Below are positions 15,415-54,294 of a stretch of 64,000 nucleotides of DNA, one piece after another. Under the pieces are notes generated by a model. The model made no database searches and was not told the DNA's origin. It saw only the letters and a program-made list of their open reading frames with translations. This DNA is from Chloroflexota bacterium (GTDB lineage: Bacteria; Chloroflexota; Anaerolineae; UBA4142): contig JACRBM010000043.1 in assembly GCA_016219275.1 (NCBI GenBank), positions 1-64,000 of the forward strand, given 5' to 3'. Every line of letters begins with the position of its first letter. Position 1 is the first letter of the stretch. The position numbers and the translations under genes were made by a program.

Positions 15415-15454
15415 TCGACACCTCCAGATAGCGCGTTCGATGGTCTTGGTGAGG

Positions 15455-32618: not shown

Positions 32619-32642
32619 ACTCGGCGTAAAGAGAGGGACACG

Positions 32643-33275
32643 ATGGTCAAGACAACACACCCGTTAACCAAAAATCAAAATCAGAAAAGCAACTTGGATT
32701 GGGATCAGGTGCGGCAACACCTCGCCGAATCGCAAGCCCAAATGTCCGGCGAAAAAGCAGTGCCGTACGAAAAAATGAAAGCGGTCTTGCTCGAACGCGC
32801 CAAGGCGTTGACCAAGTCCACCGAAACGCATACGGGCGAGACGATGCAGTTGGTGGTGTTCCAACTCGCCAACGAAAAATACGGCATCGCCACCGACTAC
32901 GTCCAGGAAGTGCAGCCGCTGCGTGATGTCACGCCGGTGCCGTGCACCCCTGGCTTTGTCGTCGGCGTGATCAACATTCGCGGTTCGATCTACTCGGTGA
33001 TTGACATTCGCAGTTTCTTCGGCGTCGAGAAAAAAGAATACACGGATACGACCAAAGTCATTCTCGTCAACGCGGCGGGTTTGGAGATCGGCATCCTCGC
33101 CGACGACGTGAAAGGCGCGACGAATGTTCTCGTCAGTGACATCAAGCCGCCGTTGGCGACCCAGAGCGCGGTCAAAGAAGAATTTCTCCAAGGAGTGACC
33201 AAAGATATGCTCATCATCTTGAATCTCGAAGCGCTGTTGCGCGACGAGCGAATCATCGTCCACGAAGAGGCATAG
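32643..33275 (+). CDS. cheW: CheW scaffold protein 2, with N-terminal extension
   Basis: 210 residues. A CheW domain occupies about 65-205 ('QLVVFQLANEKYGIATDYVQEV', read in two parts, and 'VVGVINIRGSIYSVIDIRSFF'). The first about 60 residues are a charged helical extension ('VRQHLAESQAQM') not present in the first CheW. GAGAGGGAC precedes the ATG. A terminator-like hairpin follows 60 bases after the stop. Confidence 0.9.
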   Translation: MVKTTHPLTKNQNQKSNLDWDQVRQHLAESQAQMSGEKAVPYEKMKAVLLERAKALTKSTETHTGETMQLVVFQLANEKYGIATDYVQEVQPLRDVTPVPCTPGFVVGVINIRGSIYSVIDIRSFFGVEKKEYTDTTKVILVNAAGLEIGILADDVKGATNVLVSDIKPPLATQSAVKEEFLQGVTKDMLIILNLEALLRDERIIVHEEA

Positions 33276-33759
33276 TCGCGCGATGGCGTTCACCTTTTTT
33301 TCCGCGACACGCAAGCGGTTGACGTGACCCAGGTACTAGACCCGAAGGAGATCGTTCCTTCGGGTCTAATTTCTGAGAGCGATTTAATAACGCGCTCTCA
33401 AACAGGGCGTACTCCGGTATGATTTGACTATGCCCCCAAGAGTTCTCTCGACGCCGGCGCAAAATAAAGGTAAAGTGAATTCAACAAAACTCCAATGGAT
33501 ACTCCGCGAGGATTATTCCTCCGTGGACAACAGTTGCAGTCTGGAACGCGAGGCATGCGCGAGTCGGTAGGGCAACTCAAGTAAACCATCACAAGATCGA
33601 GTAGAGTGTTAGGAGTGGAGGCAGATTGGCTAACCATCGTCGGTCTACCCCAAAGGAAAAATCGCGAATTGTGGAGCGCACGGGTCCGGGACGGATGACG
33701 AAGTCGTCGTGAGGACCGCTCATATCGTTCGTGAGCAATTGCAAGGAGAGCAAGGTAAC
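33276..33759 (+). other. Intergenic leader before the first chemoreceptor
   Basis: 484 bases with no supported ORF. The first part holds the 33337-33368 hairpin. The remainder would be the leader of the receptor gene and contains a possible -10 (TATGAT near 33417) without a clear -35. I compared it with GEMM and other common aptamers and saw no match. Confidence 0.4.
33337..33368 (+). terminator. Hairpin terminator after cheW2
   Basis: TAGACCCGAAGGA pairs perfectly with TCCTTCGGGTCTA across a 6-base loop. The T-tract is short (ATTTCT), so termination may be partial. Confidence 0.6.
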
Positions 33760-36696: not shown

Positions 36697-36707
36697 TGTG
36701 ACTTGCT

Positions 36708-36740
36708 AAACCCGAAGGGTCTCGGCGACCCTTCGGGTTT
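36708..36740 (+). terminator. Hairpin terminator between the two chemoreceptor genes
   Basis: AAACCCGAAGGGTC and GACCCTTCGGGTTT pair perfectly over TCGGC. A TCTTTTTCTC tract lies 12 bases later. The stem shares its CCCGAAGG core with the 33337 hairpin. Confidence 0.6.
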
Positions 36741-36785
36741 CGGATTCCAAATCTTTTTCTCGACTTGTATGGAAACTAGGTGCTT

Positions 36786-40073: not shown

Positions 40074-42452
40074 ATGTTCAACCTTGATGACGACATCATG
40101 CGCCAATTGCGTGCGACCTTCAAAATCGAAGCCGCCGAACATATTCAGGCGATGAACCGCGTCCTCCTCGCGCTCGAACAGAATCCCGAAGAGCAAGAAC
40201 GCGCCGCGCTCCTCGCGGAAATTTTCCGCGAAGCGCACAGTCTCAAGGGCGCGGCGGGCGCGGCGGATTTTCCCGATGTGGAAAAAACCGCGCACAAGTT
40301 GGAAAGCGTATTTGGCGCGGCAAAGACCGGCAAACTCCAATTGACACGCGATTTGTGTGATGTGCTGTACGCCGGGATTGATTCGGTCGGCGAAATTGTC
40401 GAAGCGTCACTCGCCGAAAAAGACCACGGACTCGATTTGCCCGCGTTGTACGCGCGGCTCGACGCCGCCGAATGCGGACAAGTGATCCGCGATGCTCCCG
40501 CTGCACCCGTGATGCCCGCGCCGGTGATCGCGCCTCTCTCACCGGTTCCCTCGAATGGCGCGTCCGCGCCGACACCGCAAGCCGTGGTCGCACCACTTCC
40601 CGCGCCGGCAGAGCAACCGTTCGAATCGCGCGCAATCGCGGAACCGCGCAACAAGCCCGCGCCAGAAAAAGAACGCCGCAAAGCCGGCGTGCACGGTGCG
40701 CCCGCAAACGAAGATACGATTCGCGTCGCGACCGGGAAACTCGATTCGTTGATGGCGCGGTCCGGCGAATTGCTCGTCGCCGGTCTCAAGATTGATCAAC
40801 GTCTGCGCGAGATCGAAGAGACCGGGCACGCGCTCGAAGAGTTGAATCGCGAGTGGCTCAAGGCGCGCGCCGCCAACAGCGCGCTGTTGCACGATGGCAA
40901 CGAACAAATCAAACCATTGATTCGGCTGATGGATGTCTATCAAGAAAAATTGCGCGCGCTCTCCATCCAGGTCGGCGATCTCAAACGCGGTTTTTCCGGC
41001 GATGCGTTGCACTTGGCGCGCGTCACGAACGATCTCGGCGAAGGTGTGATGAAAGTGCGGATGCTCCCGGTCGCGACCGTGTTCGACGCATTTCCGCGCA
41101 TGGTGCGCGATCTCGCGCGCGACATGGGCAAAGAAGTTGAACTGCGCGTCGAAGGCGCGGAGACCGAACTGGACCGCAAGGTGCTCGAAGAAATCAAAGA
41201 CCCGGTGATGCACCTGATTCGCAACGCCGTGGATCATGGCATCGAAAAGCCGGACGAACGCGCGCGTGTGGGCAAGCCGACGCAAGGCGTCGTGAATCTG
41301 CGTGCGTTCCAAAAAGGCAATAACATCGTCATTCAAGTCGCAGACGACGGCGCGGGTATCAATCGCGATAGAGTAAAACAATCCGCGCTCAAACACGCGG
41401 TCATCACGCCCGAACAGGCGCAGGTGTTGAGCGATGACGAAGCGTTAATGCTCATCTTTGCGTCTGGTTTGTCCACTAGCCCGATCATCACCGGCGTTTC
41501 TGGACGCGGTGTCGGGATGGATGTGGTGCGGCGCAATGTCGAAGCGTTGCAAGGGCAGGTGGACGTTCACACGGCGCTCGGCAAGGGCACAACATTCGAC
41601 CTGACTCTGCCACTCACCCTCGCCACGACCCAGGAATTGCTCGTCCAGGTTGCCGACCAAACCTTCGGCATTCCAATCTCGGCGGTCGAGCGGATTCTAC
41701 GCATCAGTAAAAAAGATATTGCCGCCGTGTCGGGGCGTCGCGCCGTCGTGGTGGACGACGAACCGGTGTCGCTTGTGCCGCTCGCTCAAGTACTCGAACT
41801 GCAAAATGACGAGCAACAAGTTAGCACGGACGGCAAGATGCCTATCGTGATCCTGGGATCGGGACGCAAGCGCGTCGCGTTCCTTGTGGATGCGGTCGTC
41901 GGTCAACAGGAGAGCGTCGTCAAGAGTCTGGGTAAACAACTGGCGCGCGTGCGAAACGTTGCCGGCGCAACCATCCTGGGTTCCGGCAAAGTGGTGATGA
42001 CGCTCAACCCGATGGACTTGGTCAAGTCTATTCGCGGCGCGCAGAATCACGCCGTTGCCGCGCCGGCGAAAACGAAAAAGACCAAGCAAGCCGCGATCCT
42101 CGTCGTGGATGATTCGCTCAGCACGCGCACACTCGAAAAAAATATTCTCGAAACGGCGGGATATAAAGTGACGGTGGCGACGGATGGCGTCGAAGCGTTG
42201 AGCGTGCTCAGTTCCAACGGCGGCTACGATCTCGTCGTCTCCGATGTGTTGATGCCGCGCATGGACGGTTTGCAGTTGACCGCGAGCATCAAAAAAGATC
42301 CGAACCTGAAAAAGATTCCAGTCGTGCTCGTCACGTCGCTCGATTCGCAAAAGGATCGCGAGAGCGGCTTGGAAGTGGGCGCAGACGCGTACCTCGTCAA
42401 AAGCAATTTCGATCAGAGTAATCTGTTGGACACCGTAGCGCAGTTGATCTAG
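40074..42452 (+). CDS. cheA: CheA histidine kinase fused to a receiver domain
   Basis: 792 residues. An Hpt domain (about 8-115) has phosphorylatable H55 in 'REAHSLKGAA'. A Pro-rich linker follows, then a dimerisation region, an HATPase domain ('HLIRNAVDHGIEKPDERA', 'VADDGAGINRD', 'GRGVGMDVVRRN'), a CheW-like domain (about 510-650) and a C-terminal receiver ('ILVVDDSLSTRT', 'VSDVLMPRMDG'). There is no separate P2 domain obvious in the linker. CheA-REC hybrids feed phosphate to or drain it from their own receiver. It is the core kinase of this cluster. Confidence 0.94.
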   Translation: MFNLDDDIMRQLRATFKIEAAEHIQAMNRVLLALEQNPEEQERAALLAEIFREAHSLKGAAGAADFPDVEKTAHKLESVFGAAKTGKLQLTRDLCDVLYAGIDSVGEIVEASLAEKDHGLDLPALYARLDAAECGQVIRDAPAAPVMPAPVIAPLSPVPSNGASAPTPQAVVAPLPAPAEQPFESRAIAEPRNKPAPEKERRKAGVHGAPANEDTIRVATGKLDSLMARSGELLVAGLKIDQRLREIEETGHALEELNREWLKARAANSALLHDGNEQIKPLIRLMDVYQEKLRALSIQVGDLKRGFSGDALHLARVTNDLGEGVMKVRMLPVATVFDAFPRMVRDLARDMGKEVELRVEGAETELDRKVLEEIKDPVMHLIRNAVDHGIEKPDERARVGKPTQGVVNLRAFQKGNNIVIQVADDGAGINRDRVKQSALKHAVITPEQAQVLSDDEALMLIFASGLSTSPIITGVSGRGVGMDVVRRNVEALQGQVDVHTALGKGTTFDLTLPLTLATTQELLVQVADQTFGIPISAVERILRISKKDIAAVSGRRAVVVDDEPVSLVPLAQVLELQNDEQQVSTDGKMPIVILGSGRKRVAFLVDAVVGQQESVVKSLGKQLARVRNVAGATILGSGKVVMTLNPMDLVKSIRGAQNHAVAAPAKTKKTKQAAILVVDDSLSTRTLEKNILETAGYKVTVATDGVEALSVLSSNGGYDLVVSDVLMPRMDGLQLTASIKKDPNLKKIPVVLVTSLDSQKDRESGLEVGADAYLVKSNFDQSNLLDTVAQLI

Positions 42453-42518
42453 AAATTGGACATTAGCTAGTGAAGGTTGGAGCGAAATACACTCGATCCA
42501 ACCAACGAGGACAAACAC

Positions 42519-43580
42519 GTGATTCGCGTATTGATCGTGGATGATTCCGCCGTTTTACGGCAGAGCACCAAATTCATCTTGGAAAGCGATCCCGAACTCA
42601 AAGTGGTTGGCGAAGCCGCAAACGGCGCGGATGCCGTGACCCAGGTCGCGCGCTTGAAACCTGATGTGATCACGATGGACCTGCACATGCCCAAGATGGA
42701 TGGGCTGGAAGCGATTCGTGAAATTATGGCGCAATACCCGGCGCCGATCATCGTGGTTACCGGCGTTGATTTCGAGCGCGAGATCGGCGTTTCCACACAA
42801 GCCACCCGGCTGGGCGCGGTGTCGGTGATGCGCCGTCCTGACAGCATCACAAGTGGGGATTACAAATCGTTTGCCGCGCAATTGATTCGCCAGGTCAAGG
42901 CGATGAGTTCGGTCAAGGTTGTGCGTCACGCGCGGTCGCTCGGTGTATCGTCGGTGTTGCCAATGGCAAGCAACCCAGGAACGCCGAGATTGGCGGCGGT
43001 GGAAAGCGCGCCGGTCAAAACGCAAATTGTCGCAATCGGGTCTTCGACCGGCGGACCGGCGGCGCTCCATCAAGTGTTGCGCGCGATGCCCAAAAATTTT
43101 GCGGTGCCGATCTTGATCGTGCAACACATTTCGTTCGGGTTTGTGGACGGCTTGGCATCGTGGCTGAACGACGCGTGCGCGCTCCACGTCCAAGTGGGTC
43201 GCGCCGGCGAACGCGTCGAACCGGGCAAGGTGTACATTGCGCCGGATGATCGGCACATGATCGTAGACCGGTTTTCGCGCATCGGATTGAGCGAGAATCC
43301 ACCCGTCGGCGGACATCGCCCGGCAGTGACCGCGCTGTTTCAATCCGTCGCGCAAGCATTCGGCGCGAGCGCGCTCGCGGTGATTCTCACCGGGATGGGC
43401 GCGGACGGCGCGGTGGGCATGAAAGTGTTGCGCGACGCCGGCGGCATCACTCTCGCGCAAGACCAAGCATCGTGCGTGGTGTTTGGAATGCCGAAAGAAG
43501 CCATTGCGCTGGGCGCGGTTCGGCACATCGTGCCACTCGATCGAATCGCGCAGAGAATTCAAGAGTTGGTTGTGGTATAG
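42519..43580 (+). CDS. cheB: CheB protein-glutamate methylesterase
   Basis: 353 residues from GTG, preceded by CGAGG. A receiver domain (about 1-125, 'DLHMPKMDGLEAI') and a methylesterase domain (about 165-350) have the catalytic triad S176 ('GSSTGG'), H203 ('VQHISFG') and D296 ('GMGADGAVGM'). It reverses CheR methylation of the receptors upstream and is activated by CheA. An in-frame upstream extension lacks a ribosome site. Confidence 0.95.
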   Translation: MIRVLIVDDSAVLRQSTKFILESDPELKVVGEAANGADAVTQVARLKPDVITMDLHMPKMDGLEAIREIMAQYPAPIIVVTGVDFEREIGVSTQATRLGAVSVMRRPDSITSGDYKSFAAQLIRQVKAMSSVKVVRHARSLGVSSVLPMASNPGTPRLAAVESAPVKTQIVAIGSSTGGPAALHQVLRAMPKNFAVPILIVQHISFGFVDGLASWLNDACALHVQVGRAGERVEPGKVYIAPDDRHMIVDRFSRIGLSENPPVGGHRPAVTALFQSVAQAFGASALAVILTGMGADGAVGMKVLRDAGGITLAQDQASCVVFGMPKEAIALGAVRHIVPLDRIAQRIQELVVV

Positions 43581-43591
43581 GAGATAAGACG

Positions 43592-44005
43592 ATGATACGC
43601 GTTTTGGTGGTGGATGATTCGCCGACCGCGCGCGAAGCGATTTGCGCGATCCTGCGGAGCGAACCGGAAATTCAGGTCGTGGGCGAAGCGGCGGACGGGG
43701 CGCAGGGCGTCGAATTGGCGCGGCAACTCAAACCCGATGTGATTACGATGGACATTAATATGCCGCAGATGAACGGCTATGAAGCGACCCGCGCGATCAT
43801 GGCGAAAATGCCGACGCCGATCGTCGTCGTCACCAGCGTCACACAAAAAGAGCTCATCCATGAAGGTCTCGATATTCTGCTCGCCGGCGCGCTCGAAATC
43901 GTGCAAAAGCCGAGCAGTCTCACCGATACGAGTTTCGCTTCTGTCGGCGCGGAATTGATTGCCAAAGTCAAAGCCGTTTCGCAAATCAAGTTTCCGCGTC
44001 CGTAG
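43592..44005 (+). CDS. Single-domain receiver of CheB type (CheY-like)
   Basis: 137 residues, a lone receiver with D8/D9, acceptor D54 and 'KPSSLTDTSF' after the switch Lys. The sequence ('DGAQGVELARQLKPDVITMDI') is much nearer to CheB receivers than to CheY and may be a CheB copy that lost its esterase. The ATG at 43592 follows GGAG. It could be the diffusible CheY of this pathway or a phosphate sink. Confidence 0.85.
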   Translation: MIRVLVVDDSPTAREAICAILRSEPEIQVVGEAADGAQGVELARQLKPDVITMDINMPQMNGYEATRAIMAKMPTPIVVVTSVTQKELIHEGLDILLAGALEIVQKPSSLTDTSFASVGAELIAKVKAVSQIKFPRP

Positions 44006-44035
44006 GATCAATGTCGTTCACCCAGGAGTCTGACC

Positions 44036-45997
44036 ATGAACAATCGCATTCTCGTTGTCGACGATAGCCGCACCGAAGCGATGCGCGCGCGCCTGATTTT
44101 GGAACGCGCCGGCTATCAAGTCAGTCTTGCCGCCGATGGGAAAGAAGGTCTGGTCAAAGCGACCGTAGAAAAACCGGACGTGATTGTGCTCGACACGGTG
44201 ATGCCGCAAATGAGCGGCTTGGAAGCGTGCGGTATTCTCAAGATTGATCCTAAGACGAATTCGATTCCGATCATCCTGCTGGTGAGCAATGGCGAAGCCG
44301 CCGATCTTCCGTCGGGATCGGGCTTGGACTGTTTGTTGAACAAACCGTACGAACCGAACGCGCTCGTCAGTAAAATTCAATCGCTCACCACCGCGCGCGC
44401 GCTTGCGTCCGATTTCGGCGAGGATACAGCGCGTTTGAAAACCGAGTTACAAAACGCGCGCCAGGAAATTCAAGCCGCGCATAAAGCGCGCAGCGATTTT
44501 CTCGCAAACATGAGTCACGAACTGCGAACGCCGTTGCACGAAATCATCGGCATGACTGAGTTGATGTTGAGCACGCCGTTGAATATCGAACAGGAAAAAT
44601 ATGTCAACACTGTCAAGCAATCGTCGAACGCGTTGCTCAGTCTCGTCAGCGATGTCATCGAATTCTCCGAACTCGAAGCCGGGCAGCTGGGACTGGAAGA
44701 GCAACCGTTCAATCTTAGCGAACCCATCGAACGCACGACCGAGATCATGTCGCCGCGCGCATCGGACAAGGCGCTCGATCTCGCGGCGACCGTGGGCGCG
44801 AATGTGCCGCGGCAACTCATCGGCGACGCGAATCGTTTGCGTCAAGTGCTGGCGAATCTGGCGGCGAACGCGATCAAGTTTACCAAGAAAGGCGGCGTCA
44901 CGATTCGCGTGGATGCCGAAGCGATCCATGATCGCGAGGTAGAACTGCATTGGCGCGTGAGCGATACCGGCATTGGCATTCCCGCCGACCGGCATGAACT
45001 CATCTTCGAACCATTTCAACAAGCCGACACTTCGGCGACGCGGCGTTTTGGCGGACTGGGTATGGGACTTGCGCTCGCGAAACAACTTGTCAAACTGATG
45101 GGTGGTCACATCTGGGTCGAAAGCGAACTGGGCAAGGGTAGCACGTTCCATTTCACGGTTAAGATGAAAATGCTGGTCCCAGTCGCGCAAGCGCCCGCCG
45201 CCTTCGCGACGGGCAAGGGTTGGCTCCGCGCGTTACGGATCCTCGTCGCGGAAGATAGCCCGACGAATCAACTCATCGCGAAATCATCGCTTACCAAAGC
45301 CGGGCATACCATCACGCTCGCGTCGAACGGCTTCGAAGCGGTCAAGCAATTTGAATCTTCGCACGCGCCGGACGCGCCGCCGTTCGACCTGGTTCTGATG
45401 GATGTCGCGATGCCGGAGATGGATGGACTGGACGCGACGCGTGCGATTCGCGAAAAAGAAAAATCGCTCGGCGGTCATCTCACGATTGTCGCGATGACCG
45501 CGTTTGCTACGAAGGAATATCAAACCAAGTGCATTGATGCTGGGATGGATGCGTACGTCACCAAGCCGGTTCGCATCGAAGAATTGAATCGCGTGATCGA
45601 ACCGTTGCTGACCAAGCCCATCGAAACCCAGCCCGCGCCAGTGGATTTGCGCGAGGCGCTCGAAGTCGTGGGCGAGGACATTGATATTTTGCGCGATGCA
45701 GTCGCCTCGTCGCTTGCCGAAGTGCCGGCACAATTACAGATGCTCAAAGACGCGATGTCGAATCAAGACGCGTCGGCGGTCGAAGCCAAGGCGCATCGGC
45801 TCAAGGGTGTGATGGCGAACCTGGGTGGTTTGACTGCGCGCGAGGTCGGTCAGCGCCTCGAAACGATGGGCGAGCAAGGCAACCTCGTGGGCGGACACGA
45901 TGCGGTAGCCGCGTTCGAAAAAGAAATCACGCGCGTGATCGCGTTCTATACGGATCCGGCGTGGGAACAATCCGCGCACGCGCTCGCGGGAGGATAA
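44036..45997 (+). CDS. Hybrid histidine kinase REC-HisKA-HATPase-REC-Hpt
   Basis: 653 residues. An N-terminal receiver (about 3-125), a coiled coil, and a HisKA domain with H161 in 'MSHELRTPLHEI' come first. The HATPase follows ('LANLAANAIKFTKKGG', 'DTGIGIP', 'GLGMGLALAKQLV'), then a second receiver ('LVLMDVAMPEMDGLDA') and an Hpt domain with H587 in 'AKAHRLKGVMANLGG'. All four relay stations are present. There is no membrane segment, so it listens to cytoplasmic input, possibly CheA through the first receiver. The lone receiver four bases downstream and the receiver on ArlH are candidate relay targets. Confidence 0.93.
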   Translation: MNNRILVVDDSRTEAMRARLILERAGYQVSLAADGKEGLVKATVEKPDVIVLDTVMPQMSGLEACGILKIDPKTNSIPIILLVSNGEAADLPSGSGLDCLLNKPYEPNALVSKIQSLTTARALASDFGEDTARLKTELQNARQEIQAAHKARSDFLANMSHELRTPLHEIIGMTELMLSTPLNIEQEKYVNTVKQSSNALLSLVSDVIEFSELEAGQLGLEEQPFNLSEPIERTTEIMSPRASDKALDLAATVGANVPRQLIGDANRLRQVLANLAANAIKFTKKGGVTIRVDAEAIHDREVELHWRVSDTGIGIPADRHELIFEPFQQADTSATRRFGGLGMGLALAKQLVKLMGGHIWVESELGKGSTFHFTVKMKMLVPVAQAPAAFATGKGWLRALRILVAEDSPTNQLIAKSSLTKAGHTITLASNGFEAVKQFESSHAPDAPPFDLVLMDVAMPEMDGLDATRAIREKEKSLGGHLTIVAMTAFATKEYQTKCIDAGMDAYVTKPVRIEELNRVIEPLLTKPIETQPAPVDLREALEVVGEDIDILRDAVASSLAEVPAQLQMLKDAMSNQDASAVEAKAHRLKGVMANLGGLTAREVGQRLETMGEQGNLVGGHDAVAAFEKEITRVIAFYTDPAWEQSAHALAGG

Positions 45998-46000
45998 GGG

Positions 46001-46423
46001 ATGGCGTTTCGAATTTTGTGTGTGGATGACGATCAGCCGCAATTGAGCATCATCTCCGCAGTGCTGCGGAAAGAGGGTTATGAGGTGGATTGTGCGCTCG
46101 ACGGGAACGAGGGTCTGGTCAAAGCGCGTTCGTTCAAACCAAACCTCATCATCCTGGATGTGATGATGCCGGGCTTGAACGGATACCAGGTCTGCAAACG
46201 ATTGCAAGCGGATCCGGAGACCGCCAAGATAGGCGTGTTGATGTTGACGGCAAAAGGCGGCGTGGACGATAAATATCGCGAAGCCGGCGATTTTGCTGGC
46301 AAGGTCAAGGACCGCATGGCTGGGTTTGAAGTCGGCGCAACCGAGTTCTTGACCAAGCCAATCAAAGCGAAGGAACTCGTTCAGCGCGTCAAAGCCGTGC
46401 TCTGGGCGCACGGCAATGAATAA
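46001..46423 (+). CDS. Single-domain response regulator with inserted loop
   Basis: 140 residues, a receiver ('ILCVDDDQPQL', 'LIILDVMMPGLNGYQV', switch Lys in 'FLTKPIKAKEL'). An insertion of about 15 residues follows strand 4 ('GGVDDKYREAGDFAGKVKDR'), unusual for CheY. It begins three bases after the hybrid kinase stop, so it is likely its partner. A terminator-like hairpin follows, closing the signalling block before the ubiquitin-like genes. Confidence 0.9.
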   Translation: MAFRILCVDDDQPQLSIISAVLRKEGYEVDCALDGNEGLVKARSFKPNLIILDVMMPGLNGYQVCKRLQADPETAKIGVLMLTAKGGVDDKYREAGDFAGKVKDRMAGFEVGATEFLTKPIKAKELVQRVKAVLWAHGNE

Positions 46424-46432
46424 GCAAAACTA

Positions 46433-46460
46433 GGAACGCTCCAGCGAGCGTTCTGGTTTT
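46433..46460 (+). terminator. Hairpin terminator before the ubiquitin-like genes
   Basis: GGAACGCT and AGCGTTCT pair around CCAGCG, followed by GGTTTTCC. It separates the receiver gene from the E2-like gene, which starts 16 bases later, so read-through must occur if there is no extra promoter. Confidence 0.55.
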
Positions 46461-46475
46461 CCGAGTCATTGAAAC

Positions 46476-46910
46476 ATGGAACTCGCCGAGGCGCTCCGTC
46501 GTAAAATCGAGCGCGATGTGGAACAAGCGCAAACTTTTTATCCGATCACGCCGATTCGCAACGCGAACGGGATGATCTGCCGATTGCAATTGGAGATGAG
46601 CGGGGCAATCGGCGCGGGCAATCCCGCGCGGATGCACTATGCGCTCTTGATCACGCTGGACGGCTATCCGTTCGTTTGCCCGCGCGCGTGGGTCGAAAAA
46701 CCGGACGATGCGTTTATCTTTCACATGCAAATATGGCAACCGCGCCCGCCGCTCAATTTGCCGGAAGTGTGCACGAGCGCGGAGTTGGCGTACCAAAAAG
46801 ATTGGACGGCGCGCCGCATCGCGCCGGGCGAACGAACGATCCTGGGTTTTCTGCGCCAGGTGCTGTTCATGCTCAACAACGAAAACACGCACAGCAAAGC
46901 GCGTCCGTGA
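46476..46910 (+). CDS. E2-like ubiquitin-conjugating (UBC-fold) protein
   Basis: 144 residues with the order of an E2 fold: an N-terminal helix ('ELAEALRRKIERDVEQA'), strands ending in 'HYALLITLDGYPFVCPRAWV' (the YPF.P turn of E2 enzymes), a His-containing strand ('IFHMQIW'), a candidate catalytic Cys C99 in 'LPEVCTSAEL', and the downstream Trp helix ('YQKDWTARRIAPG', 'ILGFLRQVLFMLNNEN') like the 'W.p...ti..vl..i..ll..pn' end of true E2s. The canonical HPN is not kept; H83 is the nearest His. Predicted to take the Ubl from the E1-like protein encoded next and pass it to a target. Confidence 0.82.
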   Translation: MELAEALRRKIERDVEQAQTFYPITPIRNANGMICRLQLEMSGAIGAGNPARMHYALLITLDGYPFVCPRAWVEKPDDAFIFHMQIWQPRPPLNLPEVCTSAELAYQKDWTARRIAPGERTILGFLRQVLFMLNNENTHSKARP

Positions 46911-46923
46911 GACAGCCAAGACG

Positions 46924-47041
46924 TGTCGTTGCGAGGAGCGTAGCGACGACGCAATCGCCAGATCGCTGATTGGGGATTGCTTCGGACACACTTGCCCTGG
47001 CGGGAACGCAAGTGCCAGGGAAAACCGCCCTCGCAATGACA
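46924..47041. repeat. MITE-like inverted repeat inside the ubiquitin-like operon
   Basis: The outer arms TGTCGTTGCGAGG (46924-46936) and CCTCGCAATGACA (47029-47041) match at 12 of 13 positions. Inner GCAATC/GATTGC and CCCTGGC/GCCAGGG pairs add further stems. It has no ORF and lies in the 181-base gap between the E2-like and E1-like genes. The arm sequence is a common extragenic repeat type in environmental bacterial genomes. Confidence 0.7.
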
Positions 47042-47091
47042 GCATGGCAGAATGATTTGAATGTTCACTCGTAGGTCTTCCGAGATAAACC

Positions 47092-48726
47092 ATGAACTGG
47101 GAATTTGAACGCTATAAACGACAACTGGGACTCGTGCATCAACGCCGCGTAATGGATTTGAACATCCTCTTGCTTGGCGATGGTCCCGCCTTGCCGTACG
47201 TCGCGACGAATCTCGCGCTGCTCGGCGTCGGCACGCTGACTCTGCCCGCCGCGTCTAGCTGCGTCACCACGCAACAGCGCGCCGGTCAGTTTCTTTTTCG
47301 CGCGGAGGATGAAGGCGCGCCGATTTCGGAAACGCTCGCGCGGCGCGTCGCGGAATTGAATCCGCGCATCCACGCGGAGTTCGTCGAGCCGCAACACGCA
47401 CGCGCGTGCGATGCCGTCGTCGTCACCTCCGATGTGGCGCACGCGTTGCCGTCGAACATTCCGGTGATTTGGGCGGGCGTGACCGATTACGGCATGTTTA
47501 TCGGCGCGCGTAAACCGCACGCCGCGCCGCTCGCGCCGAATCTCATCACGCCGGCGCTTGCCTCGCTGTGCGGCGCGCTCGCCGCGCAAGAAGTGCTGCG
47601 TGTGACGCGTTGCCTTCGTCCCTCCGAGATCGTCAAGTTCTGGGTCACGCTCAACTATGCGTTGCGCGAACCGGCGAACGCGGGACTCGTATTCGCGGTG
47701 GACGGTGCGCCGACGGCGTCGTTCAGCGACAAGCCAGATGGCGCGTTGCCGATCTGCCGCGTCCCGGTAAATTTGAACAATGATCTGGTGCGTCTCTTGT
47801 TCGAACAATCCACGTTGGGCGAGCCGATTGCGGAGATTTACGATAGCCCGACCGAGTGTTTGTACTATTCGCCGTTCTGGGGCAATCGGCTTGAGAACGA
47901 TGGCATCGTCGAAGCGCCGATCGCGTTGTCCGCGCCGCACGCGCCGCGCGTCGTGCTCGGCGGGATCGGCGGGCTGGGTACTTGGGTCGCCGCGTTGCTC
48001 GCCGTGTCGGATTTCACCGGCGAACTTGTCGTGTTTGACGCCGACACGCAAGTTGAAAATCACAACCTCAATCGCCAGGTGCTGTACGACGATAGCGCGA
48101 TTGGCGCGCCGAAAGTGCATGCGGCGGCGCGCGCGCTGCGCCGGATCAATCCCGCGCTCACCGTCACCGCGTTGCTCGAAGAGATTCAAGCGACGACAGT
48201 GGTCACGCACGCCGAGTTGATGGCGCACGCGAATCTGGCGATCAGTACGTTCGACAACTTTCGCGCGCGCTATGTGTTCAGCGAATGGGCGGCGTTGAGT
48301 TTTGTGCCGCTCGTCAATGGCGGGTCAGATGGATTTAACGGTGATGTCGAGGTGATCGAGCCAGCCAAGCACGGCTGTCTGCTTTGTCGTTGGGAGCAAG
48401 CGCGCGGGCGCACGGTCGCGCAAACGATGAGTATGGACGAAGCGCATCTCTCGTGCACGCGCGAGGATGCGAACGCGCCGGAAGTCGGCGCGGCGCTCGT
48501 CACGACGACCGCCGCGATTGCGAGTTGGCAAACGTTGCTCGCGCTGTTGGCGTTGGCGAAACCAGCTGCGCGCGTGGATCATCACCTGGGTTTCCTGGGC
48601 AAAGAGAACGCGGTCGAAAAATGTCGGATCGCGACGCCGTGCCCGGTCCACGAAAAAGGCGCGTGTGAACATCCGCAACGATTTTGGCAGATGCTCGAAG
48701 AGACCATTCACGGAGACGATCCATGA
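47092..48726 (+). CDS. E1-like activating enzyme with two ThiF-type halves
   Basis: 544 residues. The C-terminal half is an active-looking adenylation domain: G290-G296 'GGIGGLG', 'DADTQVENHNLNRQ' (316-329), zinc Cys C429/C432 in 'GCLLCR' and C517/C525, and a candidate transfer Cys C455 in 'HLSCTRED'. The N-terminal half (about 1-280) begins like an E1 ('ERYKRQLGLVHQRRVMDLNI') and keeps the Rossmann pattern, but the loop reads 'GDGPALP' and the catalytic Arg/Lys motifs are missing, so it looks like an inactive partner domain. This mimics the inactive/active pairing of eukaryotic E1s and of bacterial BilD. It would adenylate the Ubl C-terminus. Its end overlaps the JAMM start by ATGA. Confidence 0.85.
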   Translation: MNWEFERYKRQLGLVHQRRVMDLNILLLGDGPALPYVATNLALLGVGTLTLPAASSCVTTQQRAGQFLFRAEDEGAPISETLARRVAELNPRIHAEFVEPQHARACDAVVVTSDVAHALPSNIPVIWAGVTDYGMFIGARKPHAAPLAPNLITPALASLCGALAAQEVLRVTRCLRPSEIVKFWVTLNYALREPANAGLVFAVDGAPTASFSDKPDGALPICRVPVNLNNDLVRLLFEQSTLGEPIAEIYDSPTECLYYSPFWGNRLENDGIVEAPIALSAPHAPRVVLGGIGGLGTWVAALLAVSDFTGELVVFDADTQVENHNLNRQVLYDDSAIGAPKVHAAARALRRINPALTVTALLEEIQATTVVTHAELMAHANLAISTFDNFRARYVFSEWAALSFVPLVNGGSDGFNGDVEVIEPAKHGCLLCRWEQARGRTVAQTMSMDEAHLSCTREDANAPEVGAALVTTTAAIASWQTLLALLALAKPAARVDHHLGFLGKENAVEKCRIATPCPVHEKGACEHPQRFWQMLEETIHGDDP

Positions 48727-49403
48727 AACCGCCGGTCCGAAAATGCGTAATTGATACACGCGTCTATCAAGCCGCCTTGGAATTTGCCGGCAATCTCGAA
48801 CGCGATGAATGGGGCGGGATTGGCATTGGCACGTACATGAAATCCGGCGAGGCGTATCTCAAGGGAATAGTCTTTCCGCCGCAATATCGGAGCAACTCGG
48901 CGTACTGCGCGTTCGAGATGAAATATCTCGCGCTGCTCAAATTCGCGCTCGGTGACCTGGGAATTTTTCCCCAAGTCACGATGATTGCCTGGGTGCATTC
49001 GCATCCGGGGCACGGCATTTTTCTTTCGGATATTGATCGGGAAACGTTTGGCGATCTGTTGAGCGAGAACGAACGCCTGCTCGCGCTCGTCATCGAACCG
49101 GTTCAGCGCGAGATCGGCGCGTTCATCGGAGTGCAAGCCAACGAGCAAGTTCCGATCCCGGTCGAACAACGCGAACTGGGGTTGAGCGAAGATCAGCGCA
49201 TCCGTTTGAGCGTGCTCGAAAGTATGTTGCCTGAAATGCCCAAGGTCATCGTGCCGCCGCTGCCCAGTACGTTCTCGGCGCACGCCGCGCTCGAAGTGGC
49301 GTACACGCTTTCGGAAAAAGTGGTACGTCTGCGTCGGTGGCTCGCCATCTCGGAGCGGGCGCGCGGAGTGGAGCAAGCCCAACTAAGCGATGAGCCGGCG
49401 TAG
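48723..49403 (+). CDS. JAB/JAMM-family metalloprotease (deubiquitinase-like)
   Basis: 226 residues from the ATG overlapping the E1 stop. The full JAMM site is present: E29 in 'RDEWGGIGIG', then H92, H94, S102 and D105 in 'HSHPGHGIFLSDID', matching HxHx7SxxD. A helical C-terminal extension (about 150-226) is longer than the minimal fold. JAMM partners of bacterial Ubls trim the Ubl precursor behind GG and remove it from targets. Here the Ubl carries two residues after GG, so trimming by this protein is expected. Confidence 0.9.
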   Translation: MKPPVRKCVIDTRVYQAALEFAGNLERDEWGGIGIGTYMKSGEAYLKGIVFPPQYRSNSAYCAFEMKYLALLKFALGDLGIFPQVTMIAWVHSHPGHGIFLSDIDRETFGDLLSENERLLALVIEPVQREIGAFIGVQANEQVPIPVEQRELGLSEDQRIRLSVLESMLPEMPKVIVPPLPSTFSAHAALEVAYTLSEKVVRLRRWLAISERARGVEQAQLSDEPA

Positions 49404-49470
49404 AGTTGAGTTGCCCAAACATCTCTCTTGTCGAGTACTATGTACGTTAAGAAAATGATTTGGAATTTCA

Positions 49471-49516
49471 GATTTGGTCGAGACGTTCGCGAAGCGTGCA
49501 ACGTCTCGACCAAATC
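49471..49516. repeat. Palindromic element between the JAMM and Ubl genes
   Basis: GATTTGGTCGAGACGTT (49471-49487) and its exact complement (49500-49516) flank CGCGAAGCGTGC. The 17-bp stem could reduce transcription into the Ubl gene or mark a mobile insertion. No T-tract follows. Confidence 0.65.
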
Positions 49517-49562
49517 CAATTCTAATATCAAACCTCAACATCTATAGTTCAGGAGCATCGCG

Positions 49563-49817
49563 ATGTCAACCAAAAATGTTCAAGTCTATGTGTACTTTGC
49601 GTGGAAAGATAATCACGTCACTATCCAGGTAGACGAGAATCAAACCGTGCGGAGCGCGTTACGCTGGGTGTTGCCGCAAGGCGTCAACATTGATTCGATT
49701 GAAAATGCGATTGACGAGACCGGTTTGAACGTGATTGACCAACACGGCGCAAACCTCCACGATGGAATGAAAATCACCGTTAGCCGCAACAAGGTGTACC
49801 AGGGCGGCGCGCGATAG
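49563..49817 (+). CDS. Ubiquitin-like protein (beta-grasp) ending in GG plus two residues
   Basis: 84 residues. Strand-strand-helix-strand order fits a beta-grasp ('VQVYVYFAWKDNHVTIQVDE', 'TVRSALRWVLPQG', then 'GANLHDGMKITVSR', the 'L.DG..' turn of ubiquitin). The chain ends Q-G81-G82-A-R, so removal of two residues would expose the diglycine used by E1/E2 systems. AGGAGC precedes the ATG. It is the last gene of the E2-E1-JAMM-Ubl set and lies 186 bases before arlH. A YukD/EsaB-like Ubl is the alternative, but those lack GG and sit with type VII secretion genes, which are absent here. Confidence 0.82.
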   Translation: MSTKNVQVYVYFAWKDNHVTIQVDENQTVRSALRWVLPQGVNIDSIENAIDETGLNVIDQHGANLHDGMKITVSRNKVYQGGAR

Positions 49818-50003: not shown

Positions 50004-51074
50004 ATGGCAACCAAGAAGAAGAAAATTCTACTGATCGAGAATGATTTGCAGTTGGTCGAATTGGCGCGCTATCCGTTGGAAGAGGACGGCAATGCTGTCA
50101 TCGCGTCCACGGATGGTCCTGCCGGTTTGCGCGCCGCGCGGCGCGAACAACCCGACCTTGTGCTCGTAGATTTCAAATTGCCTTCGCAAAAAGGCAATGA
50201 CGTTGCCAAGGCGCTCCGCAAAGACCCCGCGACGGAACACATCCGCATCGTGATGATCGCGGACGAGAGTCAACTCGAAAATCTCGAAATCGGTCCGGGA
50301 TCGTCCGTTGACGATTTTCTGATCAAGCCCTTTGCGCCGGCTGAACTCATCACCAAGATCAAGCCCCTGCTCAAGAGCGACGACGACCTCAAGAGCAAAC
50401 TGATTTCCACCGGCAACTATGACCTCGACAACAAAATGGGCGGCGGCGTGCCGTTCGGTTCGCTCACGTTGATCGAAGGCGATTCGGGTGCGGGCAAGTC
50501 CGTGCTTTCGCAACAAATGATGTACGGTTGTTTGGTAGACGGACTCAAACTGTCGCTCTTTTCGAGCGAGAACACGGTCAAGAGTCTGGTCAAACAGATG
50601 CGTAGTTTGAACATGGACATTCTCGATTACCTCTTGCTCGACAAACTTCGCATCTTTCCGATCGAGACGGCGCGTCTCGGTCGTGAAGCGCCGCCGACCC
50701 TGCTCAAAGCCATGAAAAACGAAAAAGGGCGCGAGATGATTTTGGTGGACTCGCTCACCTCTTCGATTCCAAACTCGTCCGATAAAGAAGTGCTGGGATT
50801 TTTCGAAGACAGTAAACGCATGTGCGCGGAAGGCACGACCGTCATGGTCATCATTCACACGCATGGTCTCACGCGCGAGTTGCTCACCCGCTTGCGTTCA
50901 TTGTGCGACGCGCACTTGCAACTCCGCACCGAAGAAGTGGGCAACAAACTCGTCAAGACGCTCGAAGTGACCAAGGTGCGCGGCGCGGAGCAAACGACTG
51001 GCAACATTATCAGTTTCGAAGTCGAACCCGGTTGGGGCATTCGGGTCATTCCGATCAACAAAGCCAAAGGATAA
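50004..51074 (+). CDS. arlH: ArlH motor ATPase regulator with N-terminal receiver domain
   Basis: 356 residues. Residues 5-125 are a response-regulator receiver with E12/D14, acceptor D56 in 'LVDFKLPSQKG' and switch Lys K108 in 'FLIKPFAP'. Residues 132-356 are an ArlH (FlaH) RecA/KaiC-like domain: 'STGNYDLDNKMGGGVPFGSL', Walker A 'GDSGAGKS' (159-166), and Walker B-like 'MILVDSLTS'. In archaea ArlH is a free-standing ATP-binding protein that docks on ArlI and is the point where chemotaxis acts. Here the receiver could let phosphorylation act on the motor directly. It starts the arlHIJ set; arlI begins seven bases on. Confidence 0.93.
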   Translation: MATKKKKILLIENDLQLVELARYPLEEDGNAVIASTDGPAGLRAARREQPDLVLVDFKLPSQKGNDVAKALRKDPATEHIRIVMIADESQLENLEIGPGSSVDDFLIKPFAPAELITKIKPLLKSDDDLKSKLISTGNYDLDNKMGGGVPFGSLTLIEGDSGAGKSVLSQQMMYGCLVDGLKLSLFSSENTVKSLVKQMRSLNMDILDYLLLDKLRIFPIETARLGREAPPTLLKAMKNEKGREMILVDSLTSSIPNSSDKEVLGFFEDSKRMCAEGTTVMVIIHTHGLTRELLTRLRSLCDAHLQLRTEEVGNKLVKTLEVTKVRGAEQTTGNIISFEVEPGWGIRVIPINKAKG

Positions 51075-51080
51075 ACCATT

Positions 51081-52859
51081 ATGGGTGGTCGTGTCGTTTT
51101 GCCGTTCGAACAGCCCAATGATATTCAGTGCGATCACGGAACGCGTTGTCCGATCAACGCGGTTTCCAAAGCCCTGCGTAAAGCGTGCGAGGAAAATCCG
51201 ACGCTGTTTGACTATCTCCATTGGCTGCCGATGGACCAAGTCGGCGTGCCGGAATTTTATCCCAAACTCTCGCGCGATATGTCGAGTTTGGAACAGCGCA
51301 ACCTCATCTATCCGATCAAGGAAGGATTGTACGTCCATATCTTTCCCGACCCTAAAGGTGAACGTGATAGGTATATTCCCATCGAACCGCACCTCGTCGT
51401 CAATCTCGACGAGATCATCCCACAACTCGAAGTAAAATTGCTCGACTATGTGGAAAAGATCGGCGCGGCGGAAACGACCGATGATAAACGCGCGGCATTG
51501 CTCGAAGCGATTGACAAGAGTACATTCGTAGACCCTCTGGCGTTGGTGAAACGACAAGCCGCCGCGACTGCCGCGGCAAACGCCAAGTCGAATGGCAACG
51601 GCAACGGCAAATCGAACGGCAAAGACAATTTCACACACCTGGGCAAGGTGATCGTGACGCCGCGCGAGATGGAGGCGCTCAAGTACTTGCTCTTGCGCGA
51701 TAAAATCGGTTTCGGCTTGCTTGCCCCGTTCCTGCTCGATACCTACATCGAAGATATATCGTGCAGCGGCGTTGGTTTCATTTTCATCGAGCACAAAATT
51801 TTCAAAAGCATCCAAGCCGCGATCAACTTTGCGACCGAAGACGATGTGGACGACTTTGTAATTTGGATGGGCGAGTGGATCAAGCGCCCCGTCACCGTTC
51901 GCAATCCGATCGTGGACGCGGTGCTTCCCGACGGCTCGCGTATCAATATCGTCTATGGCACGGACGTGAGCAAGCGCGGCAGCAACTTTACGATCCGTAA
52001 ATTTTCCGACGTGCCGGTCAGCATCACCGAGTTGATCGAGTTCGGGACGATGGATTACATGATGGCGGCGTATCTCTCGTTCGTCCTCGAAGAAGGCATG
52101 AACATGTTCGTTTGCGGCGCGACCGCGTCCGGCAAGACGACGACGATGAACGCGATCACCACGTTCATTCGTTCCGACAAAAAAATCGTCAGCATCGAAG
52201 ACACACCGGAGTTGCAAGTGCCGCACAAGAACTGGATCCGCGAGACGACGCGCGGTTCGGGTAAAGAGCACACTGGCTCCGAAGTCGGCATGTTCGATCT
52301 GCTGAAAGCCGCGCTGCGGCAACGCCCCGACCGCATCATCGTGGGCGAGATCCGCGGTGAAGAAGGCGCGATCGCGTTTCAAGCGATGCAGACCGGTCAC
52401 GGCGTCATGTCCACCTTCCACGCGGCGTCGGTGGAGAAACTGATTCAACGTTTGACCGGCGATCCGATCAACATTCCGAAATCGTACGTGGATATTCTCG
52501 ACGTGGTGCTGATCCAAGCCGCGGTCAAAATCGCCGGGCGCGGCATGGCGCGGCGTGTAACCAGCATCAACGAAATCGTCGGCTATGACCCGCCCTCGGA
52601 AAGTTTTTCGTTCATCGAAACGTTCAAGTGGAATCCCGCGACGGACACGTTCGACTTTCCGGGCTTTATGAACAGTTACTTGCTCGAAGAAAAAGTCGCG
52701 CTCAAGCGCGGTATTCCGCCCTTCAAGAAAAAAGTCATCTACACCGAACTCAAACGCCGCGCCAAAATTTTACAACGTTTGCACGTCGAAAGAAAGTTGA
52801 AGAATTTCTATGACGTCTTCGCCGTCCTCGCCGAAGCACAGCGCCAGGGACTACTTTGA
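51081..52859 (+). CDS. arlI: ArlI archaellum motor ATPase
   Basis: 592 residues. The N-terminal domain contains an unusual Asn/Gly/Lys linker (about 172-182) not conserved in archaeal ArlI. The C-terminal secretion-ATPase domain has Walker A 'GATASGKT' (346-353), an Asp box ('VSIEDTPELQVP'), Walker B 'RIIVGEIRGEEG' and a His box ('QTGHGVMSTFHAAS'). The pattern 'EDTPEL.vph.nW' is closer to archaeal FlaI than to TadA/CpaF. It powers archaellin assembly and rotation. arlJ starts inside its 3' end. Confidence 0.92.
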   Translation: MGGRVVLPFEQPNDIQCDHGTRCPINAVSKALRKACEENPTLFDYLHWLPMDQVGVPEFYPKLSRDMSSLEQRNLIYPIKEGLYVHIFPDPKGERDRYIPIEPHLVVNLDEIIPQLEVKLLDYVEKIGAAETTDDKRAALLEAIDKSTFVDPLALVKRQAAATAAANAKSNGNGNGKSNGKDNFTHLGKVIVTPREMEALKYLLLRDKIGFGLLAPFLLDTYIEDISCSGVGFIFIEHKIFKSIQAAINFATEDDVDDFVIWMGEWIKRPVTVRNPIVDAVLPDGSRINIVYGTDVSKRGSNFTIRKFSDVPVSITELIEFGTMDYMMAAYLSFVLEEGMNMFVCGATASGKTTTMNAITTFIRSDKKIVSIEDTPELQVPHKNWIRETTRGSGKEHTGSEVGMFDLLKAALRQRPDRIIVGEIRGEEGAIAFQAMQTGHGVMSTFHAASVEKLIQRLTGDPINIPKSYVDILDVVLIQAAVKIAGRGMARRVTSINEIVGYDPPSESFSFIETFKWNPATDTFDFPGFMNSYLLEEKVALKRGIPPFKKKVIYTELKRRAKILQRLHVERKLKNFYDVFAVLAEAQRQGLL

Positions 52860-54294
52860 GGAAATCAGTCCCTTCGACATGTTCTATCAATTGACTTATA
52901 TGTCTGCCACCGCGACGGCGGGCGTTTCGCGCAGCAAGGTGTTCGAATTGGCGCGCAAACTCCCGTGCACGCCGGCGCGCTTTTTCAAAGAAGTGGACGA
53001 GATCGTCACGAATATGCGCTTTAATTATCCCGACGCGGTGCAGATGGTGGGCGAGCGCGCCAAGACGGAAGAAGTGAAAACATTTTTGCTCCGCCTCTCC
53101 GATGCATTGCGCTCCGGCGAACCGCTTCCTGGGTTTCTCACGCGCGAAGCTGGTGTGCTGGGTGAGCAGTACGGCAACGATTACGAAACAAAACTCGAGA
53201 GTCTGAAGAAATGGACCGACGCGTACACTTCGGTCACCGTGTCTGCCGCACTCATCGTGATCATGATTATGGTCTCGACAATGATCTATTCGATGAGTCC
53301 CATCACGATGGCAGGCATGATTATCGTTTCGATTGGCGGCGCGTTCGCCGTCGCGTGGATTATGCTCCGCACGTCGCCACAAGAAGTGCTCGACGTGGCG
53401 CTTCACAAAGGATCCAAGCAACAAAAGCTAACGCTGACACTAGCGCGCGTTCTGATTCCGTTCAGTATCCTCGTGCCAGTCGCGCTGGTCTATTTTCTGA
53501 ACCTCAACAAGGGGTGGGCATTGATTGCCTTTGGTCTCATTGTCACGCCGATTGGTCTTGTGTACAATCAATCGCAAGGCAAGACTCAGCGCAAAGACCG
53601 TGAGATCAGTGATTTCCTGCGCTCGGTTGGCGGCGCGGCAACCTCGCGGGGCACGACGCTCAAAGAAGCGATTGCGACGTTGCGGTTCGAATCGTTCCCG
53701 ACGCTCAAGCCGGATATTCGGATGTTGGATTTGCGCTTGAAAGCATTCGGCAAACCGCGCTTGTGCTGGGATATGTTCGCGACGGAAACGGGCAGTAAAC
53801 TTGCCGAGCAAGCGACTGGTGTATTTACTGAAGCGGTGGGCTTGGGCGGCGACCCCGAACGCGCCGGCATTTTGACCAGCCAATTCGCGATGAAGACCGC
53901 GATGTTGCGCGAGAAACGCCGGGGCGTTGCGGCAACCTTCGCGTGGCTCATCATCGTGATGCACGGTGTGATGTCCGCGTTGATGGTCTTTCTGCTAGGG
54001 ATTCTAGCGCAGTTCACCGTGCGGATGGAAGCGGTCATGCGGGACGCCGGTGGCACGAGCGCGTTATCGAGTATGGGCTTGGGCGGGATGTTCCAGTTCA
54101 ACGCCGCGCAGATCAATTTTCTGACCGATATGATTTTGGGCATGACGTTTATGCTCGCATTCGTCAACGCATTCGCGGTCGTCGCGAGTGAAGGCTCGCA
54201 CATCATCAAGACCATTTTCTACGCGGGAATTCTGCTGATCATTTCCGGCGCTCTGGTTCTTGTTGGTCCGTCGCTTGTCAAGTTGGTGATTTAG
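52810..54294 (+). CDS. arlJ: ArlJ polytopic platform protein
   Basis: 494 residues, seven to nine membrane helices in two T2SF-type halves. The N-terminal 'DYFEEISPFDMFYQLTYMSA' followed by 'AGVSRSKVFELARKLP' matches archaeal ArlJ (FlaJ). The large cytoplasmic loops carry basic and acidic patches that contact ArlI. The ATG at 52810 overlaps arlI by 50 bases and keeps the conserved N-terminus; the next Met (about residue 24) would cut it. It is the membrane base on which ArlI acts. Confidence 0.92.
   Translation: MTSSPSSPKHSARDYFEEISPFDMFYQLTYMSATATAGVSRSKVFELARKLPCTPARFFKEVDEIVTNMRFNYPDAVQMVGERAKTEEVKTFLLRLSDALRSGEPLPGFLTREAGVLGEQYGNDYETKLESLKKWTDAYTSVTVSAALIVIMIMVSTMIYSMSPITMAGMIIVSIGGAFAVAWIMLRTSPQEVLDVALHKGSKQQKLTLTLARVLIPFSILVPVALVYFLNLNKGWALIAFGLIVTPIGLVYNQSQGKTQRKDREISDFLRSVGGAATSRGTTLKEAIATLRFESFPTLKPDIRMLDLRLKAFGKPRLCWDMFATETGSKLAEQATGVFTEAVGLGGDPERAGILTSQFAMKTAMLREKRRGVAATFAWLIIVMHGVMSALMVFLLGILAQFTVRMEAVMRDAGGTSALSSMGLGGMFQFNAAQINFLTDMILGMTFMLAFVNAFAVVASEGSHIIKTIFYAGILLIISGALVLVGPSLVKLVI

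What the first reader, a model, noticed from the sequence alone, without database searches (positions are those of the whole stretch)
46476..49817. Ubiquitin-like conjugation operon (E2, E1, JAMM, Ubl) embedded between chemotaxis and archaellum motor genes
All four parts keep their key residues: E2 Cys99, E1 nucleotide loop and Cys455, JAMM HSHP...SDID, and Ubl with GG two residues from the end. They lie on the same strand between the receiver gene and arlH. I know of Bil-type antiphage operons with the same four functions, but not of one built into a motility locus. The Ubl could modify archaellin, ArlF/G, receptors or motor proteins, or the set could be a defence island that landed here.
Basis: partly seen in the sequence, partly recalled or inferred. 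Interest (0 to 1): 0.95.

Follow-up and report, generated by a model that had tools for sequence, protein, structure and literature searches.

The report
Ubiquitin-like tagging genes in motility operon
A Chloroflexota bacterium carries a compact four-gene kit that looks able to attach and remove a small ubiquitin-like protein tag, placed between its chemotaxis genes and its archaellum motor genes; the kit exists in only one other known genome, where it also follows the chemotaxis genes, so it may be a tag-based control of sensing or movement rather than an ordinary phage-defence set.

Summary
On the + strand at 46476-49817 lie an E2-like gene (Cys99), a two-half E1 (inactive N half, active C half, Cys455), a JAMM isopeptidase (E29, HSHP-x6-SDID) and an 84-aa Ubl ending GG-AR, between a response regulator of a full che operon and receiver-ArlH/ArlI/ArlJ. 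E1 is certain by profile; JAMM is motif-complete with weak profile support; E2 rests on motif, topology and a low-confidence fold; Ubl on context, its GG end and a weak fold.

In several hundred related genomes and a pattern scan of 84,980 species, the set occurs in one other genome (sister genus, G137). The che-RR-arlH junction is conserved without it; 16 of 18 arl genomes lack it. In G137 it still follows the same che regulator while arlHIJ lie on another contig. Its synonymous divergence equals that of che and arl genes and dN/dS is 0.12-0.35: gained once, inherited with che, kept by selection. No defence neighbours; no plasmid, phage or viral-contig relatives. It works like Bil (IAD-AAD E1, Ubl needing trimming) but fails tested Bil features. 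Most likely a lineage-specific reversible Ubl system tied to chemosensory/archaellum control (target inferred); rival: displaced defence module.

The parts
31044..33275 (+). cheR-TPR (31044-32618) and cheW (32643-33275) at the head of the chemosensory cluster
   Evidence: Pfam CheR 1.3e-49, CheW 2e-33
33709..39710 (+). two multi-HAMP chemoreceptors (MCP), 995 and 976 aa
   Evidence: Pfam MCPsignal 2.9e-36 and 7.3e-37 with HAMP arrays
40074..42452 (+). cheA (Hpt-dimer-HATPase-CheW-receiver)
   Evidence: Pfam
42477..46423 (+). cheB, response regulator, hybrid histidine kinase (44036-45997), response regulator (46001-46423); order conserved in G137, G227, G118, G171, and in part in G247, G087 (contig ends cut the rest)
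46424..46475 (.). 52-nt RR-E2 spacer with a strong hairpin (terminator-like or bidirectional; co-transcription with che not shown)
   Evidence: RNA fold -17.8 kcal/mol, z -3.2; scan lists it as terminator-like on the - strand only
46476..46910 (+). E2-like conjugating enzyme, 144 aa, catalytic-type Cys99
   Evidence: active-site block QIW..N.PEVC..A..W aligns with IWHPN..GSVCIDA..W of an Ubl-E2 fusion in the same genome (hhalign P 0.022, 27 columns); low-confidence AlphaFold2 model resembles UEV/RWD/E2 folds incl. Ubc9, UFC1, BilB 8tz0, BubB 9eae; orthologue 76% identical in G137
46911..47091 (.). E2-E1 spacer holding a strong hairpin element
   Evidence: sequence; RNA fold z -3.6
47092..48726 (+). 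E1-like activating enzyme, 544 aa: N-terminal inactive ThiF-type half (about residues 1-190) plus active ThiF half (284-509) with Cys455 and CxxC...C...C metal-site cysteines
   Evidence: Pfam ThiF 4.5e-43, two stretches in NCBIfam ThiF/MoeB models; N half also hits a ThiF domain, residues 19-99, 2e-10; alignment
48723..49403 (+). JAMM/JAB isopeptidase, 226 aa (E29, H92-x-H94, S102-x-x-D105); ATG overlaps E1 stop
49455..49530 (.). dispersed hairpin repeat inside the JAMM-Ubl spacer (5-bp spacer in G137)
   Evidence: fold -40.6 kcal/mol, z -8.2; 25 matches in the own genome, 5 in G137
49563..49817 (+). Ubl, 84 aa, C-terminus ...KVYQGGAR (GG codons 49803-49808); G137 orthologue has a tail of about 30 residues after GG
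   Evidence: fold model weak
50004..51074 (+). receiver domain-ArlH fusion (downstream neighbour)
   Evidence: Pfam Response_reg 7.7e-16 + KaiC; NCBIfam PRK06067 FlaH 2.8e-76, above its cut-off; ArlH equivalog 207.7 bits, just under its cut-off of 215
51081..54294 (+). arlI (51081-52859) and arlJ (52810-54294)
   Evidence: NCBIfam archaellum ATPase FlaI 9e-198; ArlJ/FlaJ 1.5e-104 (below its cut-off)

Best explanation
The four genes form one lineage-specific ubiquitin-like modification module. JAMM is expected to trim residues after the Gly-Gly of the Ubl; the two-half E1 adenylates the Ubl C-terminus and loads it on Cys455; E2 takes it on Cys99 and transfers it to a target amine without a dedicated E3 in the cluster; JAMM also removes it. 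The module was gained once, at the junction between the che operon and arlH in the common ancestor of two Chloroflexota genera, and has since been inherited with the che genes and kept by selection. The most likely role is reversible tagging of a chemosensory or archaellum component. Shown: gene content, active-site residues, order, synteny, shared descent, purifying selection. Inferred: every catalytic step and the target.
For: Complete parts with key residues. Same four genes, same order, behind the same response regulator in G137. Junction HK-RR-arlH-arlI without the cassette in G118, G227, G171, and with other inserts in G247, G006, G087. G000 and G137 are sisters with support 1.0 in the che and arl FastTree trees and 1.0/100 in the joined trees. 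Synonymous divergence of cassette genes (dS about 1.0-1.2; Ubl 2.1 near saturation) equals cheB, rr, hk, arlJ (1.0-1.15); dN/dS 0.12-0.35. GC3 and codon usage match the neighbours. No match to the E2 in plasmids or phages, nor to JAMM or E1 in viral contigs. Other relatives put signalling genes at this very junction: winged-helix regulator + GGDEF in G247, kinase and receivers in G006.
Against: Only two genomes carry it. 16 of 18 arl genomes of the class lack it, so it is not needed for archaella. The characterised bacterial E1-E2-JAB-Ubl sets named in the literature read here are defence-linked or suspected so (PMC10097602, PMC11354881, PMC13373217). E1 and JAMM evolve faster (dN/dS 0.27-0.35) than che genes. 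A hairpin lies between RR and E2, so co-transcription with che is unproven. The RR|arlH junction accepts varied cargo, so position alone is weak evidence. E2 and Ubl have no profile match of their own.
Confidence: 0.45

Rival explanations
1. A Bil/Bub-like antiphage or stress module that landed at the RR|arlH junction and has no functional tie to motility; it tags phage or host proteins during infection.
For: Same four functions and E1 layout as Bil as described in PMC11354881; E1 hits PADLOC E1-E2 models (3e-10) and BilD weakly (5.6e-04); patchy distribution; E1 relatively fast evolving; the junction takes different inserts in relatives.
Against: PADLOC BilA/BilB/BilC models do not hit; no recognisable defence gene among the immediate che/arl neighbours; no relatives in plasmids, phages or viral contigs; inherited vertically at che through the split of two genera instead of the turnover usual for defence genes.
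Confidence: 0.37
2. A host Ubl module with a general housekeeping target (for instance membrane or metabolic proteins) that sits next to che by accident.
For: The breakpoint between Ubl and arlH in G137 shows that neighbours change; the same genome holds another, unrelated Ubl system away from motility genes.
Against: Retention behind the same che regulator in both known carriers.
Confidence: 0.13
3. A sulfur-transfer set of the ThiS/MoaD-ThiF/MoeB kind with no protein conjugation.
For: E1 best named profile is ThiF.
Against: Two-half E1, a separate Cys-bearing E2-like protein and residues after the Ubl GG do not fit; ThiF/MoeB equivalog scores lie far below cut-off.
Confidence: 0.05

Closest known systems
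Bil (bacterial ISG15-like, BilABCD)
   Same: Ubl, separate E2, JAMM and separate E1 with inactive N half and active C half holding the catalytic Cys; JAMM expected to expose the Ubl C-terminal Gly (features of BilABCD as described in PMC11354881).
   Different: E2 lacks the CEHH motif of BilB; Ubl is a single domain, BilA is described as two; BilA/B/C profiles do not hit; gene order E2-E1-JAMM-Ubl; context is che/arl, not a defence island.
Bub (bacterial ubiquitination-like) operons
   Same: Bacterial Ubl conjugation operon; low-confidence E2 model matches BubB 9eae at Z 5.3.
   Different: Bub operons often carry CapW, CapH+CapP or CapK+CapS regulators (PMC13373217); none was recognised among the immediate neighbours. 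No Bub profile was on hand.
Type II CBASS Cap2/Cap3
   Same: E1 and E2 chemistry plus JAB protease; PADLOC E1-E2 models hit the E1 at 3e-10.
   Different: Cap2 fuses E1 and E2 and conjugates cGAS (PMC10097602); here the two are separate, a Ubl is present and no CD-NTase is nearby.
Operon type 6d of Iyer et al. 2006 (PMC1779556)
   Same: Stand-alone Ubl with C-terminal Gly, JAB, E1-like and E2-like genes.
   Different: 6d adds an alpha-helical protein and a JAB-N domain, and its E2 has a conserved His after the Cys; the window E2 has no His between Cys99 and H139 near its C-terminus. 6d was not listed for Chloroflexota or beside che/arl in the passages read.
GntR-ThiF E1 / RING-TM / Ubl-E2 fusion / FHA-JAMM / vWA cluster of the same genome (G000:C42) and of G171, G227, G292, G098
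   Same: Another E1-E2-JAMM-Ubl system in the same order; E2 active-site block alignable.
   Different: Ubl fused to E2, E1 with one ThiF domain, RING-like membrane protein, FHA and vWA partners; elsewhere in the genome.
Ubl(GG)-X-JAMM-dual-ThiF E1 clusters in G181 and G284
   Same: E1 with two ThiF halves and a matching Cys column; Ubl-like protein ends in GG.
   Different: No recognisable E2; other partner genes; in G181 not at its arl locus.

Membership tests
Bil | Ubl, E2, JAB and E1 encoded together as separate genes | tested here: met
Bil | E1 with N-terminal inactive and C-terminal active adenylation halves and a conserved Cys after the adenylation motifs | tested here: met
   alignment; N-half ThiF match
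Bil | E2 CEHH motif (Cys+6 Glu, +8 His, +13 His; PMC11354881) | tested here: not met
   after Cys99 the window and G137 proteins read C-T/V-SAEL-A/L-YQKDWTARR, no His
Bil | BilA with two tandem Ubl domains (as described in PMC11354881) | tested here: not met
   84-aa single domain
Bil | recognised by BilA/BilB/BilC/BilD profiles | tested here: not met
   only BilD at 5.6e-04, weaker than many E1-E2 models
Bil | JAMM pre-processing of Ubl | not testable with these tools
   residues after GG are present in both orthologues; needs biochemistry
Bil | defence-island context | tested here: not met
   context is che and arl genes
Bil | protection against phage | not testable with these tools
   needs a phage challenge
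E2/UBC superfamily | UBC fold with catalytic Cys after the YP..P and iW/N/VC block | tested here: inconclusive
   motif alignment; fold hits dominated by UEV/RWD/E2 but model pLDDT 51
JAMM/MPN+ isopeptidases | Glu plus HxHP-x6-SxxD | tested here: met
Ubiquitin-like beta-grasp modifiers | beta-grasp fold and C-terminal Gly-Gly | tested here: inconclusive
   GG present; model pLDDT 60 with ubiquitin fragment and SUMO1 among weak hits, Z about 2
Bub operons | Bub gene set with CapW/CapH+P/CapK+S regulators | tested here: inconclusive
   no such regulator recognised among the immediate neighbours; no Bub profile available

The most novel reading that the evidence does not exclude
Reversible conjugation of a ubiquitin-like protein regulates bacterial chemosensory or archaellum machinery: a prokaryotic Ubl pathway wired into motility control rather than defence or sulfur metabolism.
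Probability: 0.35. Interest if true: 0.9.

Novelty: new variant of a known kind. Interest (0 to 1): 0.62.

Why it matters
Bacterial E1-E2-JAMM-Ubl systems are known mainly as antiphage modules. A set that has been inherited beside a chemotaxis operon through the split of two genera would point to Ubl tagging as ordinary cell regulation in bacteria, and bears on how ubiquitin signalling arose. It also touches an open question: how chemotaxis signals reach the archaellum motor in Chloroflexota, where CheF is missing (PMC12488501).

Tried and rejected
Tested whether the arlH leader of G137 shows that Ubl was inserted into that leader: the shared segment is a dispersed repeat with 25 matches in the genome, so this history was dropped. 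Structure models of E2 (pLDDT 51) and Ubl (pLDDT 60) were too weak for Foldseek (no hit below E 0.6); VIA rows are quoted with that caveat. PDB sequence searches with the E2 and Ubl profiles gave nothing usable. Viral-contig scans for JAMM and E1 found nothing. The GTDB contig scan used two short peptide patterns and may miss diverged relatives. The listed E1 hits in other class genomes match the second ThiF half only; those inspected were MoeB/ThiF-like or the dual-ThiF clusters. The first tree script printed no trees; repeated with FastTree and IQ-TREE.
Full report
What is there. The window is contig 43 of a 6.16-Mb draft genome; its nearest carrier relative, G137, is a groundwater Chloroflexi MAG (contig JACRPR010000249.1, same length and content as G137:C221). 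From 31 to 46.4 kb runs a full chemosensory cluster: CheR-TPR, CheW, two multi-HAMP receptors, CheA, CheB, a response regulator, a hybrid kinase and a last response regulator. From 50.0 kb run receiver-ArlH, ArlI, ArlJ and further genes. Between them, on the same strand, lie E2 (46476-46910), E1 (47092-48726), JAMM (48723-49403) and Ubl (49563-49817).

Parts. E1 is certain: ThiF 4.5e-43 over its second half. Its first half is also ThiF-like (residues 19-99 hit another E1's ThiF domain at 2e-10) but lacks the glycine loop and acidic residue, i.e. an inactive adenylation half. In an alignment with other E1s of the class, Cys455 falls in a column that is Cys in three of them and a gap in a MoeB-like protein. 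JAMM has E29 and HSHP-x6-SDID; its Prok-JAB score is sub-threshold, but a two-sequence profile finds RPN11 at 8.4e-07. E2 has no profile hit; its QIW..N.PEVC..A..W block aligns with IWHPN..GSVCIDA..W of a Ubl-E2 fusion in the same genome (P 0.022), and the low-confidence model matches UEV, RWD, Ubc9, UFC1, BilB and BubB folds best. The HPN motif itself is not kept. The Ubl is 84 aa, ends GGAR; the G137 reading frame runs on for about 30 residues after GG, so a trimming step is implied. Its fold is only weakly supported.

Spread. E1 was searched in 298 genomes of the class, E2 in 400 of the phylum, JAMM in the 20 of the order and 396 of the class, and E2 patterns in 84,980 species genomes. Only G137, another genus of the same family, carries the set. 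Among 18 arl-bearing genomes of the class two have it.

Synteny and history. HK-RR-arlH-arlI is conserved without the cassette in G118, G227 and G171; G247 has a winged-helix regulator and a GGDEF protein at the junction, G006 and G087 extra kinase/receiver genes. In G137 the order is cheA-cheB-RR-HK-RR-E2-E1 on one contig and E1-JAMM-Ubl-holB on the next, the E1 being cut at residue 159/161 by contig ends; arlHIJ are on a third contig behind a ferritin-like gene. Window and G137 are sisters in the che tree, the arl tree and the joined tree. dS of E2, E1 and JAMM (1.0-1.2) matches cheB, rr, hk and arlJ (1.0-1.15), dN/dS is 0.17 (E2), 0.34 (E1), 0.27 (JAMM), 0.12 (Ubl, near saturation). Codon use and GC3 fit the neighbours. 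One gain in the common ancestor, then vertical descent under selection, explains this; the split from arl in G137 came later. In G137 JAMM and Ubl are 5 bp apart, so the window's JAMM-Ubl spacer was probably widened by a dispersed hairpin repeat.

Mechanism. By analogy with Bil as described in PMC11354881: JAMM exposes Gly-Gly, E1 adenylates and loads the Ubl, E2 transfers it, JAMM reverses. The residues for each step are present; no step is shown. The target is inferred from place: two of two carriers keep the set directly behind the che response regulator. That is suggestive, not proof, since the junction is open to other cargo and a hairpin separates RR from E2.

Membership. It works like Bil but fails Bil tests: no CEHH in E2, single-domain Ubl, no BilA/B/C profile hit, no defence context. 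It is close in content to operon type 6d of Iyer et al.. It differs from the other Ubl systems of the same order, which use a Ubl-E2 fusion, RING-TM and FHA/vWA partners, and from E2-less dual-ThiF clusters. In the paper library I found no report of a Ubl set in a motility locus; the two Chloroflexota archaellum papers do not mention ubiquitin. The library is open-licence only, so absence is not proof.

Verdict. A real, complete, rare and vertically inherited Ubl conjugation module at a che/arl junction: a new variant of a known kind. That it controls sensing or motility is the best single reading, but not much ahead of a displaced defence module.

Noticed in passing
window 50004-51074; also L060, L090-L096, L039, L042, L044, L046: ArlH carries an N-terminal receiver domain (residues 8-120). 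Matches over (nearly) the whole fusion occur in 13 of 18 arl-bearing genomes of the class; two more have a separate receiver next to ArlH. With CheF reported missing in Chloroflexota (PMC12488501, which does not mention receivers), this fusion is a candidate direct chemotaxis-to-motor link.
   Followed up: partly
window 58443-61412: RtcB RNA ligase interrupted by an intein (Pfam Intein_splicing spanning 109-604), next to archease.
   Followed up: no
L058 5816-14087 (G000:C42): Second Ubl system in the same genome: GntR-ThiF E1, RING-like membrane protein, Ubl-E2 fusion, FHA-JAMM, JAMM, FHA and vWA proteins; related clusters in G171, G227, G292, G098.
   Followed up: partly
L132 8176-13649, L133 1204-5986: Clusters with a small protein ending GG, a 411-420-aa unknown protein, JAMM, dual-ThiF E1, an unknown helical protein and a membrane protein, with no recognisable E2, in G181 and G284.
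   Followed up: no
window 13741-15495 (-): TIR domain fused to sortilin/Vps10-like repeats.
   Followed up: no
window 49438-49547: Hairpin repeat of about 110 bp, dispersed through this genome and present in G137, including upstream of its arlH.
   Followed up: partly
L090 4212-5617: In G247 the RR|arlH junction holds a winged-helix regulator and a GGDEF protein instead of the Ubl cassette.
   Followed up: no
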